NCBI GenBank assembly: GCA_017469785.1
Contig: JAFUFU010000051.1
Coordinates: 28,512-92,511 of the forward strand
Direction of reading: 5' to 3'
DNA from: Treponema sp.
GTDB taxonomy: Bacteria; Spirochaetota; Spirochaetia; Treponematales; Treponemataceae
Length of the DNA stretch: 64,000 nucleotides
The position numbers and the translations under genes were made by a program. The notes beneath the pieces were generated by a model that saw only the letters and a program-made list of their open reading frames with translations, was not told the origin of the DNA and did no database searches. This document shows, piece by piece, positions 47,203 to 53,181 of the stretch; within the stretch, counting starts at the first letter, position 1; every line of letters begins with the position of its first letter.

Positions 47203-48909
47203 TCATTTTTTCTCGGTGATTGTAAAGACCATAAGCGTGCCGTCTTGCTGCAAAATGCCTTGAATTTCAACATTTTTGCTCTTGAGCTTTTTCAAGTCAT
47301 CGAAGGTGACGGGCTTGGGTCTGTTTCCTTTGCCTTTGCCGCCCATTTTCATATCAGGGGGATTTCCTCCCATTTCAGGCCGGTCGCCGCTTGGCGGATT
47401 TCCCATTTCTGGCATCTGGCCCATTCCGCCGTCATTCTGTCCCATAGGAGGCTGCCCTTTTCCGCCCTTGCTCCCTTCCATCACTTTGAGGAGAGTCGCT
47501 TTGTTTTCAGAATCAATGAGCATGGCCTTGTTTGAGACGACGTTGAGTTTTCCCGTGAGTGTGGTCATTTCCATTTTCGGAGGCTCTTTTCCGTCATTGG
47601 GTCTGCCCTTGCCATTTTCCATTGGGGGAAGTCCTTTTTCGCCATCAGGTCGCTCTCCCCTCTTCATTCCGCCTTTTTCTGATGAAGAAAGAGCCTTTTC
47701 CAAAGCCGTGAAGTCATATTCTGCCGGGGCGATTTTTCCGCCGTCCGCCAGGAGAATCGTTCGGCCTTTCAAGTAGCTGTTTTCATCAAGGTTCTTATTA
47801 TAGAAGATTGTGTGACCGTTGGACTTGATATTTTTGAAAGATTCGTCAGCGTCTTCGAATTTGTTGAAATATGAGTCTGCCGTGACTTCAAGTTTTGCTG
47901 ATTTTTCAAGGAAGATATCGACTTTTCCGCCCTTGTTTGCGTTAATCGCGCCAGTGAGCGAAGATTTTTTTCCAAGATTGAGCTTTACAGAGCTGATTTC
48001 GTCCACGATGATGTCGCCCCGTGCTTCCTGCGAGAGCAGGTTGAATTCAAGCTGGCCACCATTCGCGCCTTTTCTGCCCCAGCCCCTGCGTGAGTCGTTT
48101 CCGCTTGCGAGAATCAGGGTGTCGGCCTTTCCCAGCAATTTTGTTTTTTCAAGATTGACCACCGCCTTTGTGTTGGTGACATAAAAGAATGCGCTTTTTT
48201 CCCCTGAAGCCTTGTTGGTGAGAATCGAATTTTTCGCCGTGAAAAAGGCCGTTCCCACATTTGCGTCGCCACTCATGCTCTGATAAAGCATGACTCCCGC
48301 CGAAACTTCGCCGTCAAGTCCGCTTCCGCCCGTCAGGTTTGATTTTTCCAGGGTGATTGAATTTTTTCCTTCGATTACGGCAAGCTCTGAATTTTCCGCC
48401 GTGCCAGTAAGATTTTTCACGCTGATATTGCCAGTGGAATAAATGACCGGTGAGCCTTTGCCTTTGGTGAGAGCCTTTCCGCCCTCAACTGTGACCGTAC
48501 CTTCGCCCATGTCAGTGGCAAAAGCGGCGCAATGCTCGCCTTCCGTGGTGACATCAACTTTTTTCGCATTGATTGTGCCGCCAAAGGCCGCATAAAGGCC
48601 GCGGGAGCCGTTCTGCTTAGTGTAAATCGTGATTCCGCTGGCATTCACCACGCCATCATTCTGTACAAAAATCGCGTTCTTTCCGTCTTCGTCAGAAGTT
48701 ATTGTCTCGTTTTTCAGATTTTTCGTGCCAGAATCGACTTTTATGACAGCGTCAAACTGCTTTGAAATGTCATGACCGCCCATTTCACCATCTGGCGGTG
48801 GCGGAAAATCGCCGCTCATCACTGTCGCTTCGGCAAAAAGCGCGCTGACACAAAAAACTAAGCCCACTCCGAGAGCAAGTCCTTTCTTAAATCGTTTTTT
48901 TCCGTTCAT
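47203..48909 (-). CDS. Secreted beta-helix-type protein with Gly/Pro/Met-rich tail
   Basis: The 568-residue protein has a signal peptide (MNGKKRFKKGLALGVGLVFCVSALFAEA) and a PPPPDGEMGG linker. A long run of short strands follows (NAIFVQNDGVVNASGITIY, GLYAAFGGTINAKKVDVTTEGEHCAAFATD, SITLEKSNLTGG), typical of a right-handed beta-helix of the autotransporter or pectate-lyase type. Residues about 405-525 are low complexity and rich in Gly, Pro, Met, Asp and Lys. The last 45 residues form a small separate domain (FDDLKKLKSKNVEIQGILQQDGTLMVFTITEKK). AAGGAT precedes ATG 48909. No barrel is seen. The role is unknown; adhesion or metal binding by the Met-rich part is possible. Confidence 0.75.
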   Translation of the reverse strand: MNGKKRFKKGLALGVGLVFCVSALFAEATVMSGDFPPPPDGEMGGHDISKQFDAVIKVDSGTKNLKNETITSDEDGKNAIFVQNDGVVNASGITIYTKQNGSRGLYAAFGGTINAKKVDVTTEGEHCAAFATDMGEGTVTVEGGKALTKGKGSPVIYSTGNISVKNLTGTAENSELAVIEGKNSITLEKSNLTGGSGLDGEVSAGVMLYQSMSGDANVGTAFFTAKNSILTNKASGEKSAFFYVTNTKAVVNLEKTKLLGKADTLILASGNDSRRGWGRKGANGGQLEFNLLSQEARGDIIVDEISSVKLNLGKKSSLTGAINANKGGKVDIFLEKSAKLEVTADSYFNKFEDADESFKNIKSNGHTIFYNKNLDENSYLKGRTILLADGGKIAPAEYDFTALEKALSSSEKGGMKRGERPDGEKGLPPMENGKGRPNDGKEPPKMEMTTLTGKLNVVSNKAMLIDSENKATLLKVMEGSKGGKGQPPMGQNDGGMGQMPEMGNPPSGDRPEMGGNPPDMKMGGKGKGNRPKPVTFDDLKKLKSKNVEIQGILQQDGTLMVFTITEKK

Positions 48910-49045: not shown

Positions 49046-49080
49046 TTACAATAATAAAATATAGTAGTATAATGAATAAA
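49046..49080 (+). promoter_or_regulatory. Promoter of the toxin mRNA (type I TA locus)
   Basis: TTACAA at 49046-49051 and a perfect TATAAT at 49068-49073 with a 16-bp spacer. Transcription is expected to begin near 49080, just before the AGAAGCGA repeat. Confidence 0.7.
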
Positions 49081-49107
49081 GAAGCGATTGATTCTGGTGG
49101 CGTCTCC
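49081..49107 (+). repeat. 27-base repeat at the 5' end of the toxin mRNA
   Basis: GAAGCGA...GATTCT...CGTCTCC. An inverted copy lies at 49298-49324 with 21 of 27 positions identical. Because each copy lies at the start of one of two convergent transcripts, the sense and antisense RNAs begin almost identically and each can pair with the other's distal part. Confidence 0.8.
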
Positions 49108-49134
49108 CAAACTCTAAAAGATTTTAGAAGGGAG
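49104..49134 (+). promoter_or_regulatory. 5'-UTR helix that hides the toxin ribosome site
   Basis: CTCCC (49104-49108) can pair with GGGAG (49130-49134), which is the core of the Shine-Dalgarno. Inside, TCTAAA and TTTAGA form a stem with a four-base loop. The SD GGGAGG ends 7 nt before ATG 49143. Translation of the peptide would thus be limited until the helix opens. Confidence 0.7.
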
Positions 49135-49142
49135 GCTAGACT

Positions 49143-49244
49143 ATGACATGTGAACTTGTTATTGCGGTAGTAACTTGCATTGCTACGCTCGCAGGAACTG
49201 TTATAGCATTGCTCTCTTACCTTAACGGAAAGAACAAAGAGTAA
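49143..49244 (+). CDS. Small hydrophobic toxin peptide of a type I TA locus (33 residues)
   Basis: The peptide reads MTCELVIAVVTCIATLAGT, continues VIALLSYL, and ends NGKNKE: one membrane helix (about 5-27) and a short charged tail. This is the size and shape of Fst/Ldr and holin-like type I toxins, which damage membranes when overproduced. It has a strong but occluded GGGAGG site. The antisense transcription unit on the opposite strand, the shared terminator and the matched 5' repeats give the layout of the Fst (par) family. Sequence identity to known toxins is not evident, so it would be a new member by architecture rather than by sequence. Confidence 0.75.
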   Translation: MTCELVIAVVTCIATLAGTVIALLSYLNGKNKE

Positions 49245-49325
49245 AAAATAGCCGCCAAAGTCTGAACCCCTTTTGGCGGCTTATAACCCTAAAATGTGGA
49301 GACGACCTAAGAATCGGTCGCTTCT
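49243..49325 (-). ncRNA. Predicted antisense antitoxin RNA (about 83 nt)
   Basis: The minus-strand promoter TTGACT (49355-49360), 17-bp spacer, TATATT (49332-49337) should start RNA near 49325 with AGAAGCGACCGATTC, matching the start of the toxin mRNA. It runs through 49298-49324 and ends at the shared terminator near 49243. It would be complementary to the 3' part of the toxin mRNA directly and to its 5' part through the repeats. Its ends are predicted, not measured. Confidence 0.65.
49250..49281. terminator. Bidirectional terminator shared by toxin mRNA and antisense RNA
   Basis: AGCCGCCAAA and TTTGGCGGCT form a perfect 10-bp stem with a 12-base loop. On the minus strand it is followed by TATTTTTTAC, a good terminator; on the plus strand the tail is TATAACC, weaker. 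Confidence 0.8.
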
Positions 49326-49331
49326 TTTCAT

Positions 49332-49360
49332 AATATAAAGGCAAAACTATTAAAAGTCAA
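49332..49360 (-). promoter_or_regulatory. Promoter of the antisense RNA
   Basis: TTGACT and TATATT separated by exactly 17 bp, close to consensus. It lies 5 bp past the thrS stop codon, so thrS read-through would also make antitoxin RNA. Confidence 0.75.
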
Positions 49361-49364
49361 GGTT

Positions 49365-51122
49365 TTAAATCCCAACAAAGTGCGAATTCACCTTGTCCTG
49401 AACATAGCCAATGAATTCCTCAAGCTTCATAGTCTTCTGCTCAAGGCCGCTTGACTGACGGAAGCGGACTGAGACGGTTCGCTCTTTCTTTTCGTTTTCG
49501 CCTACAATCAGGATGTAAGGAGTTTTGTGCTCTTTTGTAATCACCTTGATTTTAGAGCGCATGTTGTCGCTTGAAAGATATGCATTTGAGCGGATGTCGG
49601 CGGCAAGGAGAGCCTCGTTGACTTCCCGGGCGTAATCGTCGAACTCGTTGGTGACGGGCACGACCGCAGCCTGCTCAAAGGCGAGCCATGTCGGGAAGGC
49701 ACCGGCAAAGTTCTCAATCAAGATACCCAGGAAACGCTCGAAAGAGCCCAGGATTGCGCGGTGGAGCATAACCGGGTGATGCTTCTGGTTGTCGGCTCCG
49801 ATGTAGGTTGCGTCCAGTCGCTCGGCAGAAGGAAGCTGGAAATCGGCCTGAATCGTGCCGCACTGCCATTCTCGGCCAAGGCAATCGTAGAGCTTGAATT
49901 CGAGCTTAGGGCCGTAGAATGCGCCTTCGCCCGGCTGAATCTCGTATGTAAGGCCAGCTTCGTGGCAAGCGTCGGCCAAAGCCTTTTCTGCCCGCTCCCA
50001 AGTTGCAAGGTCTCCTACATGGTCTTCCGGCATGGTTGAGAATTTTACGACAAGGTCATCAAAACCGAAATCGTGATAGACACGTTTGAGCAATTTACAG
50101 AATTTCGCGACTTCTGACGCCACCTGCTCTTCGGTACAGAGAATGTGGGCATCGTCCTGAACGAATCCTCGGACGCGCATAACGCCGTGCAAGGTTCCGC
50201 TGGCTTCGTTTCGCACATCATGGCCGAATTCGGCAAGGCGCATCGGCAAATCTTTGTATGAACGCTGGCGGCTCTTGAAGATTTCAAGTGCTCCCGGACA
50301 GTTCATCGGCTTGATTGCGAAGAGACGTTTTTCTGACTCAGTGATGAACATGTTGCGCTGGTAGTGATCCCAGTGACCGCTTCGCTCCCAGAGAGTGCGC
50401 GGCATGATTGCAGGCGTGTTGACTTCAAGGTAGCCGTCGCGGCGAACCATTTTGCGCATGTAATCCTGCATGGTGGTGTAGATTGTCCAGCCGTTAGGAT
50501 GCCAGAAAACCTGGCCCGGGTTCTCAGGGTCAACATGGAAAAGATCCATCTCGGTGCCCAGCTTTCGGTGGTCGCGCTTTTCTGCCTCGGCAAGCATGGT
50601 AAGGTAATCTTTTAAATCATTGGGCTTTGCAAAGCAAAGGGCGTAAACGCGGGTGAGCATAGGGCGAGCAGAGTCACCGCGCCAGTAAGCTCCCGCGATT
50701 TTGTCCAGCTTGAAAGACTGGGCATTGATTTCTTTTGTGGTCGCAACATGAGGGCCGCGGCACAAGTCAAGGTAGCCGTCCTGCTCGTAAGTTGAGATAA
50801 CCTCGCCTTCCGGCAAGTCTTTAATCAGCTCGATTTTGTAAGGCTCGTCAGCAAAAAGCTTGAGGGCTTCTTCTTTTGAGACTTCCTTGCGGACAAATTC
50901 TGCTCCTGTGGCGAGAATCTTTCGCATCTCTTTTTCGACGGCTGGGAAATCATCTTCGGTCAATTTTGTAGTGGCGGTGGAAAAATCGAAATCATAATAA
51001 AATCCGTTGTCGATAGCCGGGCCGATTGCAATTTTGGTTCCCGGAAACAAATGTTTGACGGCTTCTGCCATAACATGTGCGCAAGAGTGGCGCATGGTCT
51101 GAAGTTTTTCATCAACTGCCAT
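49365..51122 (-). CDS. thrS: Threonyl-tRNA synthetase
   Basis: The 585-residue enzyme charges tRNA-Thr. It begins directly with the editing (SAD) domain, [19 protein letters not shown] (HxxxH), and CRGPHV; the usual N-terminal TGS domain is absent, as is known for some spirochaete enzymes. The class II core follows ([70 protein letters not shown]) and then the anticodon-binding domain. AAGGAAG precedes ATG 51122. No T-box leader was found upstream. A tRNA-Thr gene lies about 2.3 kb away, probably by chance. Confidence 0.96.
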
Positions 51123-51348
51123 TTTACTGCTTCCTTATTTTGAAAAAATGTTCTATTAGAATACTGATTTGACAGAGAAAGTTCAACATGAATGAAAAAT
51201 TCGAATAGGACAATATTTTATATCAGAAAAATACAATATATCGTCAGTTATGTACCCCTCCCCGTATATTACAATATTATTCAATAAAAGCGTCTTTTTG
51301 ACTTATTCAGTCACGCATTTAAAGTTTCATATTAAAATGGAGGAAAAT

Positions 51349-53181
51349 ATGAAAAAACTCAGTAAAGCAACCGCTCTTCTTGCAGCGGGCACATTTTTGC
51401 TCAGCGGATTTTTTATGGCATGTACCCCGCACGGCGCAGGCGGAGCATTTGACACTGAAACTCCGGAGCCAGAGGCTCCAGAGGAAGATGACGGAAGCCC
51501 TGTCGATGGCACATGGGATTTTACAGTCAGCGATACATATTCAATCGGCTCAAGCGCATACGCAAATTTAACCGATAAGGAACTCACTAATGCAGATGCC
51601 AAGGGAGTTACGCTCGCCCTTTCAGGTGCAGTCAAGTGGGGTAATGGCAGTGCAAGCGATGCGTCTGACTTCTGCCTTTGGTTTGACAAGGGAAGCGCAT
51701 ACGCTGCTGGAAAAGAAGAGTCTTACTCAAAAGCTCATTTTACGCTCAAGACCGACAGTAAGGCGACTTTGAAAATCGTAGCAACTGGCAACGGAAGCTC
51801 GGATACAGACAAACGCTGGGTTGCAGTCTGTGATTCTACGAAAAAAGTGCTGGATTCTGGCACATTGACAGCTCTCAGCTCTGGCGAGGCTGACAAAACA
51901 CTTTCACTTTCACTCAAAAAAGGAACCTATTACATCTACACAAGCGGCTCACGAATCAGAAGTCTTGCCATCACGAATCAGGCTTTTGAAGAGAAGACAA
52001 AGACTGTCACAAATGATGTTGACACCCTCGGTCTTGTAGCTGTTAATGCGACATCTGACGACGAAACGATTGCAACTGCAGCAGTTACAGATGCTGGTAT
52101 CGCAATTACTTCCAAAAAAGAAGGAAGCACGGTGATTAACGCCGCAAAAAGCGAAACTGAAATTGCAAAAATCAAAGTTACCGTAAGCTCAACGGGCGCA
52201 ATCACAACATCTATCGTGAAGTATGAAGCATTTACAGAAGACACAGAAGAAGTCACAAACGATGTTGCTACACTGGGTCTCGTTGGCGCAAGCGTCACTT
52301 CTGACAAAGATGATTATGTAACAGCAACATTGTCAGATAATAAATCAAAAATCACCATCAAATCTGTCGCTCAGGCTGATGCCGCTGTAACAGCAAAAAT
52401 CACAGTCACAGACGCAAACAGCAAAACCGTGACTTTCACCGTAACAGAAGCCCGCAGCGGAGAGCTCACCCTTGGAGCAATTACACAATTCCAGCGTGAC
52501 GCGCCAGTGAAAGGCACTGATTATGAAGTCGATGGATTGAACTTTAAGGCAATTGGCGACAACAAAGACAACATTGAGCTTTCTACTTCGGAAACTTTTG
52601 ACACTACAGAGACATTAACAAGCTATACCGCAACTCTTACAGATGGTACAAAGTATTATGTACGCCTTAAAGCAGAAAACGACGTTTATGCTGAATCAAA
52701 AGCAGCCTCATTTACTGCTAATAACGGCGGTTCTGTCTCCACTGGCTCATTTGACCTGCTGACTTCCAATCTTGCCGAAATTGCAGTTGGAACAGAAAAT
52801 AAAGCAGCGCTTGAAGCCAATAAAACATTAACATCTGGTGGTTTGACACTGACTTTATCAGCTGTCGCAACTGGAGTTGGCACTACAACAGGCAACTGTA
52901 CCTCATGGTGTTATGTTAGCGAAAAAGGCATTCTTATAAAAAAACAAGCGATGAAACTCGAAGGCCTTACGTCTGGCACAACATTGACAATTGTTGCATA
53001 TCAAAATTCTACTACTGACAGAAATCTTGAGGTCACCATTGGTTCAACTGGAACTACAGAAGAAACCGCAATGGGTACAACTAAAGGAACAAAAACATAT
53101 ACAAAAGCTTTGATAAGCGATGATGATATTTACATCGGTGCATCAAACGAGATTTACATTCAGTCAATAACTGTTGAGTGA
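51349..53181 (+). CDS. Surface lipoprotein with Ig-like repeats and paired beta-sandwich modules
   Basis: I start at ATG 51349, preceded by GGAGG, for 610 residues; the longer frame from 51250 has no ribosome site. MKKLSKATALLAAG to FMACTPHG is a lipoprotein signal (Cys about 25). An acidic Glu/Pro linker follows. Residues about 60-210 form a beta-sandwich with RWVAVCDSTKKVLDSG and GTYYIYTSGSRIRSLAIT, two Big2-like repeats follow (VTNDVDTLGLVAVNATSDD and VTNDVATLGLVGASVTSD), and the last 150 residues are a second sandwich ending in YIGASNEIYIQSITVE. The sandwich pattern is common in polysaccharide-associated proteins. It may bind host or plant glycans. Confidence 0.8.
   Translation: MKKLSKATALLAAGTFLLSGFFMACTPHGAGGAFDTETPEPEAPEEDDGSPVDGTWDFTVSDTYSIGSSAYANLTDKELTNADAKGVTLALSGAVKWGNGSASDASDFCLWFDKGSAYAAGKEESYSKAHFTLKTDSKATLKIVATGNGSSDTDKRWVAVCDSTKKVLDSGTLTALSSGEADKTLSLSLKKGTYYIYTSGSRIRSLAITNQAFEEKTKTVTNDVDTLGLVAVNATSDDETIATAAVTDAGIAITSKKEGSTVINAAKSETEIAKIKVTVSSTGAITTSIVKYEAFTEDTEEVTNDVATLGLVGASVTSDKDDYVTATLSDNKSKITIKSVAQADAAVTAKITVTDANSKTVTFTVTEARSGELTLGAITQFQRDAPVKGTDYEVDGLNFKAIGDNKDNIELSTSETFDTTETLTSYTATLTDGTKYYVRLKAENDVYAESKAASFTANNGGSVSTGSFDLLTSNLAEIAVGTENKAALEANKTLTSGGLTLTLSAVATGVGTTTGNCTSWCYVSEKGILIKKQAMKLEGLTSGTTLTIVAYQNSTTDRNLEVTIGSTGTTEETAMGTTKGTKTYTKALISDDDIYIGASNEIYIQSITVE

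What the first reader, a model, noticed from the sequence alone, without database searches (positions are those of the whole stretch)
49046..49360. New Fst/par-like type I toxin-antitoxin locus
Two convergent promoters (TTACAA/TATAAT at 49046-49073, TTGACT/TATATT at 49360-49332) read towards one shared 10-bp terminator stem. Both predicted RNAs begin with the same 27-base repeat (21 of 27 identical). The sense RNA encodes a 33-residue membrane peptide whose SD is folded against an upstream CTCCC. This is the plan of the Enterococcus Fst (RNA I/RNA II) system, known mainly in Firmicutes, but the peptide sequence looks different and the host is a spirochaete.
Basis: partly seen in the sequence, partly recalled or inferred. 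Interest (0 to 1): 0.87.

Follow-up and report, generated by a model that had tools for sequence, protein, structure and literature searches.

The report
Likely Treponema toxin-antitoxin RNA switch
A 33-residue membrane peptide in a Treponema genome is encoded by an mRNA whose start and end appear to pair and close it into a ring, and an antisense RNA starting at that same end looks built to open the ring and shut the peptide off, which would be an unusual kind of toxin-antitoxin control if experiments bear it out.

Summary
Promoters, 10-bp stem, 33-codon ORF and shared repeat (21 of 27) lie where stated. The peptide belongs to an unnamed family: 49 of 200 genus genomes at E <= 0.01, up to 10 copies per genome, in Treponema and related spirochaetes.

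The Fst/par filing fails. Fst repeats are direct, making its RNAs complementary; here they are inverted, making the RNAs alike. The stem has a U-tract mainly in the antisense direction (mean T in 9 nt: 5.6 versus 1.9). None of 34 peptides has a proline; Fst_toxin finds nothing in 59 genomes.

The repeats are better read as two strands of a 5'-3' helix in a toxin mRNA that passes the stem. Covariation supports this (21 of 28 pairs change on both sides, no shuffle as high); RNAalifold finds it unprompted; differences are G.U-compatible in the sense RNA 105 to 9.

Best reading: a type I toxin-antitoxin-like system. The antisense captures the mRNA 3' end and returns the anti-SD to the SD. The predicted cost of opening the SD rises from 4.2 to 8.4 kcal/mol, in 76 of 78 loci. 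Transcription and toxicity are untested.

The parts
49046..49073 (+). sense (toxin mRNA) promoter TTACAA-16-TATAAT
   Evidence: sequence; best-fit consensus score over relatives 9.5 of 12 (a maximised scan, so weak evidence)
49081..49095 (+). 5' strand of the long-range 5'-3' helix (GAAGCGATTGATTCT), near the first bases of the mRNA
   Evidence: pairs with 49310-49324 over 15 bp incl. 2 G.U; covariation in relatives
49102..49108 (+). anti-SD 1 (GTCTCCC): can pair with the SD or with GGAGAC at 49298-49303
49130..49136 (+). Shine-Dalgarno GGGAGGC
   Evidence: can pair with anti-SD 1 over 7 bp including one G.U
49143..49244 (+). 33-aa single-helix membrane peptide ORF (MTCELVIAVVTCIATLAGTVIALLSYLNGKNKE), putative toxin
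   Evidence: family hits; max Kyte-Doolittle over 19 aa 2.57
49212..49216 (+). ORF-internal CTCTC (codons of LLS): candidate second anti-SD in relatives
   Evidence: not the SD's partner in the window's own minimum-energy fold
49250..49281 (-). 10-bp stem-loop, proposed terminator of the antisense RNA
   Evidence: U-tract and wobble direction favour the antisense strand
49296..49324 (+). 3' strand of the 5'-3' helix; complement of the antisense RNA 5' end; carries GTGGAGAC, which can pair with anti-SD 1
49325..49329 (+). T-rich tract (TTTTC) after the 3' strand, proposed 3' end of the toxin mRNA
   Evidence: inference; 5.7 T in 9 nt on average in relatives
49242..49325 (-). antisense RNA (proposed antitoxin), about 75-85 nt, 5' end near 49325, 3' end past the stem
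   Evidence: promoter plus stem and U-tract in sequence; coevolution with the mRNA 5' end
49332..49360 (-). antisense promoter TTGACT-17-TATATT
   Evidence: sequence; best-fit consensus score 9.4 of 12 in relatives

Best explanation
A type I toxin-antitoxin-like locus of a family for which I found no description in the searches made. The sense transcript encodes a membrane micropeptide (proposed toxin). It reads through the middle hairpin to a T-rich tract about 245 nt from its start. Its first ~15 bases and its anti-SD then pair with its last ~30 bases, closing the mRNA into a ring. The antisense RNA starts where the mRNA ends and stops at the middle hairpin, so it is a perfect complement of the mRNA 3' UTR, and its 5' end necessarily resembles the mRNA 5' end. 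By capturing the 3' end it displaces the mRNA 5' end, the freed anti-SD falls back on the SD, translation is shut, and a long duplex forms. Supported by sequence comparison: the 5'-3' helix, its sense-strand orientation, the anti-SD/SD complementarity, the antisense-directed U-tract of the stem. Predicted by folding only: the change in SD accessibility. Inferred: transcription of both RNAs and their ends, toxicity, duplex decay by RNase III.
For: Covariation of the ring helix in 63 mRNAs: 28 pairs, 87.9% of cells paired, 21 pairs changed on both sides, score 0.319 against 0.167 +/- 0.007 shuffled and at most 0.095 when slid. RNAalifold proposes the same helix unprompted; 16 of its 21 ring pairs (19 of all 27 pairs) have compensated changes. 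Repeat differences are G.U-compatible in the sense strand 105 to 9 (77 unique pairs) and 93 to 23 in helix 1 of the non-redundant alignment (38 of the 93 are in one column; 11 columns lean this way, 3 the other), whereas the middle stem leans the other way (83 antisense-GU to 42 sense-GU; 38 to 29, where 24 of the 29 are in one column). This argues against a strand mutation bias. 5' end paired with 3' end in 78 of 82 folded mRNAs; anti-SD on SD 0.94 when the 3' end is absent. Opening the SD costs 4.2 kcal/mol in the ring and 8.4 when the 3' UTR is blocked, higher in 76 of 78; window locus 2.4 versus 9.6. Eight loci with a different hydrophobic peptide keep the ring (predicted 5'-3' pairing 0.88-1.00). 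Among loci found by peptide, at least 15 have a damaged sense leader or start with the antisense side intact and 3 the reverse (by eye; binomial p 0.0075 for 15 to 3).
Against: No RNA-seq, no toxicity data. The SD is predicted mostly paired in every state (unpaired 0.12 ring, 0.08 truncated, 0.08 captured), so the switch is one of degree. By unpaired probability 16 of 78 loci go the wrong way, some clearly (for example L122 0.03 in the ring and 0.50 captured), and 21 do not change. Three loci (L009, L050, L062) keep the toxin although the antisense region is damaged. The anti-SD 1/SD helix varies too little to test by covariation. Helix 2 of the ring pairs in only 45% of cells. Blocking the 3' end in the fold is a crude stand-in for antisense binding, and the 63 sequences were chosen among loci already predicted to form the ring.
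Confidence: 0.6

Rival explanations
1. Same parts, opposite polarity (hok or aapA plan): the ring is the translationally dead stored form, SD held by the ORF-internal CTCTC, and trimming of the 3' end activates the mRNA; the antisense RNA then traps the trimmed form.
For: aapA3 of H. [quoted passage not shown]). In 48 loci whose anti-SD pairs with the 3' end, SD bases pair with the ORF with mean probability 0.64, with some covariation (0.172 vs 0.126 shuffled, no shuffle as high).
Against: Here the ring occupies the anti-SD, not the SD, and removing the 3' end is predicted to put the anti-SD on the SD (0.94). The antisense does not cover the SD or ORF. A slid version of the SD/ORF helix reaches 0.126.
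Confidence: 0.25
2. A small membrane peptide that is not a toxin (for example a regulator or stress peptide), controlled by an antisense RNA.
For: No toxicity shown; no known toxin family matches above its cut-off; three loci keep the ORF with a damaged antisense region.
Against: Multi-copy, patchy, decay-prone loci, tandem copies and preferential damage on the sense side (at least 15 to 3, by eye) are what one expects of toxin-antitoxin loci; the peptide core can differ while the RNA frame stays.
Confidence: 0.15
3. The inverted repeats act on DNA (regulator sites at two promoters) or are kept alike by gene conversion; no RNA ring exists.
For: The repeats sit at both predicted transcription starts.
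Against: The 105 to 9 sense-strand wobble bias and the opposite lean in the neighbouring stem are not expected from DNA-level action or conversion.
Confidence: 0.06
4. True Fst/par member: RNAs meet at a shared terminator loop and at repeats, masking the SD directly.
For: Convergent promoters, 33-aa peptide, anti-SD stem; some stem loops contain a possible YUNR turn (seen, not counted).
Against: Repeats inverted, terminator one-sided by U-tract, no proline in 34 peptides, no Fst_toxin match in 59 genomes.
Confidence: 0.04

Closest known systems
aapA/IsoA of Helicobacter pylori (PMC6733600; abstract and sections 3, 5 and 10 seen)
   Same: About 30-aa peptide, several chromosomal copies, upstream anti-SD 1, anti-SD inside the ORF, 5'-3' long-distance interaction in the full-length mRNA.
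   Different: IsoA3 lies opposite the ORF and masks the SD region; here the antisense covers only the 3' UTR and starts at the proposed mRNA end. In aapA3 the long-distance interaction holds the SD; here it holds the anti-SD. The peptides were not aligned to each other; no family model matched.
bsrG/SR4 of Bacillus subtilis (PMC8309996, passages)
   Same: Antitoxin overlaps the toxin mRNA at its 3' end; its binding causes SD sequestration plus RNase III decay.
   Different: No 5'-3' ring with a shared 5' repeat is mentioned in the passages seen; different host; peptides not compared.
hok/Sok of E. coli plasmid R1 (PMC8309996 passages; its 5'-3' fold-back is recalled)
   Same: Full-length mRNA held by 5'-3' pairing (recalled); membrane peptide.
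   Different: Sok binds at the mok SD, hok has the extra mok frame, and 3'-end processing with refolding raises its activity.
Fst/par of Enterococcus pAD1 (PMC7472228, passages)
   Same: Convergent promoters, 33-aa membrane peptide, SD masked by a 5' stem-loop.
   Different: Direct repeats and complementary RNAs, bidirectional terminator, PXXXG(C) motif; none was met here.

Membership tests
Fst/par type I system | convergent promoters for toxin mRNA and antitoxin RNA | tested here: met
   consensus matches in the window and relatives; sequence only, no transcripts
Fst/par type I system | direct repeats that make the two RNAs complementary | tested here: not met
   repeats are inverted in the window and in the anchored loci (83 of 89 score above 7 for like, not complementary, RNA 5' ends)
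Fst/par type I system | bidirectional intrinsic terminator | tested here: not met
   by U-tract: mean T in 9 nt after the stem 5.6 antisense, 1.9 sense, 93 unique stems; single loci can differ
Fst/par type I system | peptide with PXXXG(C) motif / Fst_toxin model | tested here: not met
   0 of 34 profile peptides contain P; PF13955 matches 0 of 59 genomes (control rings in 1 of 14 genomes, Lactococcus lactis, below the cut-off)
aapA/IsoA | 5'-3' long-distance interaction in the full-length mRNA | tested here: met
   (comparative and predicted, not probed)
aapA/IsoA | anti-SD 1 upstream and anti-SD 2 in the ORF | tested here: inconclusive
   anti-SD 1 predicted but nearly invariant; ORF partner predicted in relatives, not in the window's own fold
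aapA/IsoA | antisense RNA opposite the ORF, masking the SD | tested here: not met
   antisense promoter and stem lie downstream of the stop codon
bsrG/SR4-like 3'-overlap control | antitoxin binds the mRNA 3' end and causes SD sequestration | tested here: inconclusive
   predicted energy change in 76 of 78 loci, unpaired probability in 41 of 78; no experiment
Type I toxin-antitoxin system (general) | toxic peptide | not testable with these tools
   no growth assay
Type I toxin-antitoxin system (general) | both RNAs transcribed, antisense prevents toxin synthesis | not testable with these tools
   no RNA-seq or expression data available

The most novel reading that the evidence does not exclude
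The ring is the translatable state and the antisense RNA works like a riboswitch effector. The mRNA 3' end acts as an anti-anti-SD, so loss of the 3' end, whether by antisense capture or by trimming, turns translation off. This is the opposite polarity to hok and aapA. It would also mean that the mRNA's own 5' end supplies one arm of the structure beside its terminal U-tract, and that one RNA frame serves interchangeable membrane peptides across gut Treponema.
Probability: 0.3. Interest if true: 0.82.

Novelty: new variant of a known kind. Interest (0 to 1): 0.68.

Why it matters
A 2025 paper states that type I systems were known only from Proteobacteria, Firmicutes and Tenericutes before its own cyanobacterial case (PMC12390103; abstract, passages). 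If this locus is a working type I system, it adds Spirochaetota, with a large family of duplicated and decaying copies to compare. It also resolves a puzzle that would mislead a reader: the two RNAs share their 5' ends because the antisense RNA starts at the strand that pairs with the mRNA 5' end. It offers a directly testable RNA switch with a predicted difference in SD opening of about 4 kcal/mol on average and 7 in this locus.

Tried and rejected
Considered and dropped: (1) Antisense RNA as a trans copy of the cis anti-SD that pairs with the SD. My first idea does not explain why loop and stem bases outside the anti-SD also stay alike; the ring explains both. (2) Leader GGCGG pairing with the GCCGCC of the middle stem. 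It appears in the fold of the shortened RNA; in full-length folds the leader mostly pairs with the 3' end. Not tested further. (3) Rfam: nothing in the locus at the gathering score (which found only a tRNA elsewhere); two weak matches with E about 6. (4) Pfam, NCBIfam, PHROGs: no credible family. The best weak E-values among the 34 peptides are 0.0089 (Pfam, YopD), 0.0066 (NCBIfam, a small membrane protein model) and 0.015 (PHROGs, unknown function). One peptide of 34 matches a DinQ-related type I toxin model at E 0.057. (5) Phage and plasmid collections: no match. (6) PDB sequences: none at E <= 1. (7) Literature for type I systems in Treponema or spirochaetes: (listings and starts of abstracts only; 3, 3, 15 and 12 papers listed) show no title or abstract on this locus. 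Searches had more hits than were listed, and subscription journals are mostly not held. (8) A search for hok fold-back papers gave nothing useful. No structure was predicted for the peptide.

Rows dropped: one search used 89 of the 115 non-duplicate loci with a start codon, the rest not anchored by my patterns. One search used 77 unique pairs scoring 8 or more, of 89. One search folded 82 of 89. Alignment A2 holds 63 of the 78 with predicted ring pairing over 0.5, after a redundancy filter, so the 4 without it (L050, L056, L106, L111, all visibly damaged) are not in the covariation counts. The structure counted came from the fold of L017, which is in the alignment. One search left out weak stems and includes one mis-drawn stem (L006, 6 wobbles of each kind) and some stems drawn too long. 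The comparison of the anti-SD segment suffers from mis-anchoring (24, 16 and 47 differences of the three kinds) and was not used. Damage counts were made by eye: sense side damaged, antisense intact: L023, L036, L051, L055, L059, L061, L065, L069, L101, L106, L111, L113, L116, L124, L142 (15; L140, L144 and L145 may be further cases); reverse: L009, L050, L062 (3; L046 undecidable at a contig end; L056, L120 and L125 damaged on both sides).

Full report
What is there. The window (64 kb, 45.5% GC) is contig stretch G000:C56:28512-92511. The locus lies between a 568-aa ORF (47203-48909, minus) and an ORF read as threonyl-tRNA synthetase (49365-51122, minus; from the translation). Two relatives (G084, and G197, which has an identical copy of the locus over the stretch compared) hold it beside the same synthetase; no other fetched locus matched that gene.

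A family. The 33-aa peptide matches 57 of 196 genus genomes at E <= 1 by single sequence. With a 34-member profile it matches 49 of 200 at E <= 0.01, 52 of 274 genomes of the family in 4 of 20 genera at E <= 1e-6 (44 of the 52 are of the genus), 16 of 194 drawn from the order at E <= 0.01 and 9 of 247 drawn from the phylum at E <= 0.001, including one genome (G453) of another family with two strong copies. The order and phylum draws contain genus and family members, and hits near the thresholds may be chance. Up to ten copies occur in one genome (G336); the window's genome has one. A DNA pattern for the antisense 5' end, which the window's own copy does not match, found 62 stretches in the named collection, all titled Treponema or Spirochaetaceae/-ales/-ia except one Ruminococcus MAG that lacks the rest of the locus. 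No phage, plasmid, Rfam or PDB relative and no credible Pfam, NCBIfam or PHROGs family was found.

The repeats are inverted and coevolve. In 89 anchored loci the mRNA 5' repeat resembles the antisense 5' repeat of its own locus better than those of other loci (11.5 versus 7.4; permutation maximum 8.3 of 10,000). The own partner is best or tied best in 30 of 89, median rank 2 above it; relatedness of loci is not removed by these permutations. Fst direct repeats would make the RNAs complementary; here they are alike.

Why they are alike. If the sense RNA continues past the middle stem, it carries the complement of the antisense 5' end at its own 3' end, and the two repeats become the strands of a 5'-3' helix. 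Four results support this. First, where the repeats differ, the difference leaves a G.U pair in the sense RNA 105 times and is of the opposite kind 9 times (38 further differences are transversions, many in flanks). Some of the 105 are inherited: one column gives 38 of 93 such cells in the alignment, but 11 of 14 columns lean the same way. Second, in an alignment of 63 mRNAs the helix shows strong covariation: 21 of 28 pairs changed on both sides, no shuffle as high, slid versions far lower; helix 2 pairs poorly, 45% of cells. Third, RNAalifold finds the helix without being told, with 16 of 21 ring pairs compensated. Fourth, the middle stem has a U-tract in the antisense direction (5.6 versus 1.9 T in 9 nt) and its wobble pairs lean to the antisense strand (83 to 42; 38 to 29, where 24 of the 29 come from one column near the loop). 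The stem itself also covaries. A strand-wide mutation bias would push both elements the same way. A T-rich tract (5.7 of 9) follows the 3' strand; the equivalent place before the mRNA start has 4.2, so this is supporting, not decisive.

What the ring does. The 5' strand includes the anti-SD (GUCUCC). In full-length folds it pairs with the 3' end 0.60 and with the SD 0.37 on average; without the 3' end it pairs with the SD 0.94. In 48 loci where the anti-SD is mostly on the 3' end, SD bases pair with the ORF with mean probability 0.64 (covariation modest). The window's own fold does not use that ORF element; its SD is 41% unpaired in the ring and about 0% without the 3' end. The predicted cost of opening the SD is 4.2 kcal/mol in the ring and 8.4 with the 3' UTR blocked as antisense binding would block it, higher in 76 of 78 loci; 2.4 and 9.6 here. 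By the simpler measure of unpaired probability, 41 loci go the same way, 16 the other (some clearly) and 21 are equal. The antisense is a perfect complement of the 3' UTR (-161.8 kcal/mol over 83 nt, against -39.4 for the two ring strands). Hence the proposed mechanism: antisense capture of the 3' end returns the anti-SD to the SD. bsrG/SR4 is a precedent for a 3'-binding antitoxin that sequesters the SD (PMC8309996 passages); aapA/IsoA for a 5'-3' closed mRNA with successive anti-SDs (PMC6733600 sections). [quoted passage not shown] I rate the aapA-like polarity as the main rival.

The RNA frame outlives the peptide. Of the 62 pattern matches, 36 have the family peptide at E < 1e-4. By eye, eight encode a different hydrophobic peptide of 26-29 aa (for example in Treponema porcinum ATCC BAA-908, L192) yet keep the ring (0.88-1.00), thirteen have a broken or missing ORF with an intact antisense 5' end, four are at contig edges and one is chance. 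The eight share the C-terminal LSYLK part with the family, so they may be distant relatives rather than unrelated. Among loci found by peptide, at least 15 have a damaged sense leader or start with the antisense side intact and 3 the reverse (by eye; binomial p 0.0075). This fits a harmful peptide, but the three exceptions count against strong toxicity unless paralogues protect.

Limits. Nothing here shows transcription, toxicity or regulation. Promoters are consensus matches. Folding ignores co-transcriptional order and proteins. The statement that no description was found rests on paper searches in an open-access library, seen as listings and starts of abstracts. The statement that type I systems were known from only three phyla is from PMC12390103 (abstract and passages).

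Noticed in passing
L034, L040, L104, L122: Tandem copies of the locus about 350-460 bp apart in several genomes.
   Followed up: no
L009, L050, L144, L145, L172, L209: A recurring TCAAGG...CTTGA repeat lies inside or beside damaged copies of the locus; another repeat with CGAGTTTT / AAAACTCG interrupts others (L101, L113, L151, L161, L175).
   Followed up: no
L056: The ORF is cut short by foreign DNA that may be an insertion element; not identified.
   Followed up: no
L155, L157, L166, L171, L174, L181, L184, L192: Same RNA frame with a different hydrophobic peptide that shares mainly the C-terminal LSYLK part, which also encodes the CTCTC/CTTTC element.
   Followed up: partly
   Followed up: no
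window 47203-48909 (-) and 51250-53181 (+): Two large ORFs with signal-peptide-like starts and repetitive composition flank the region; function not examined.
   Followed up: no
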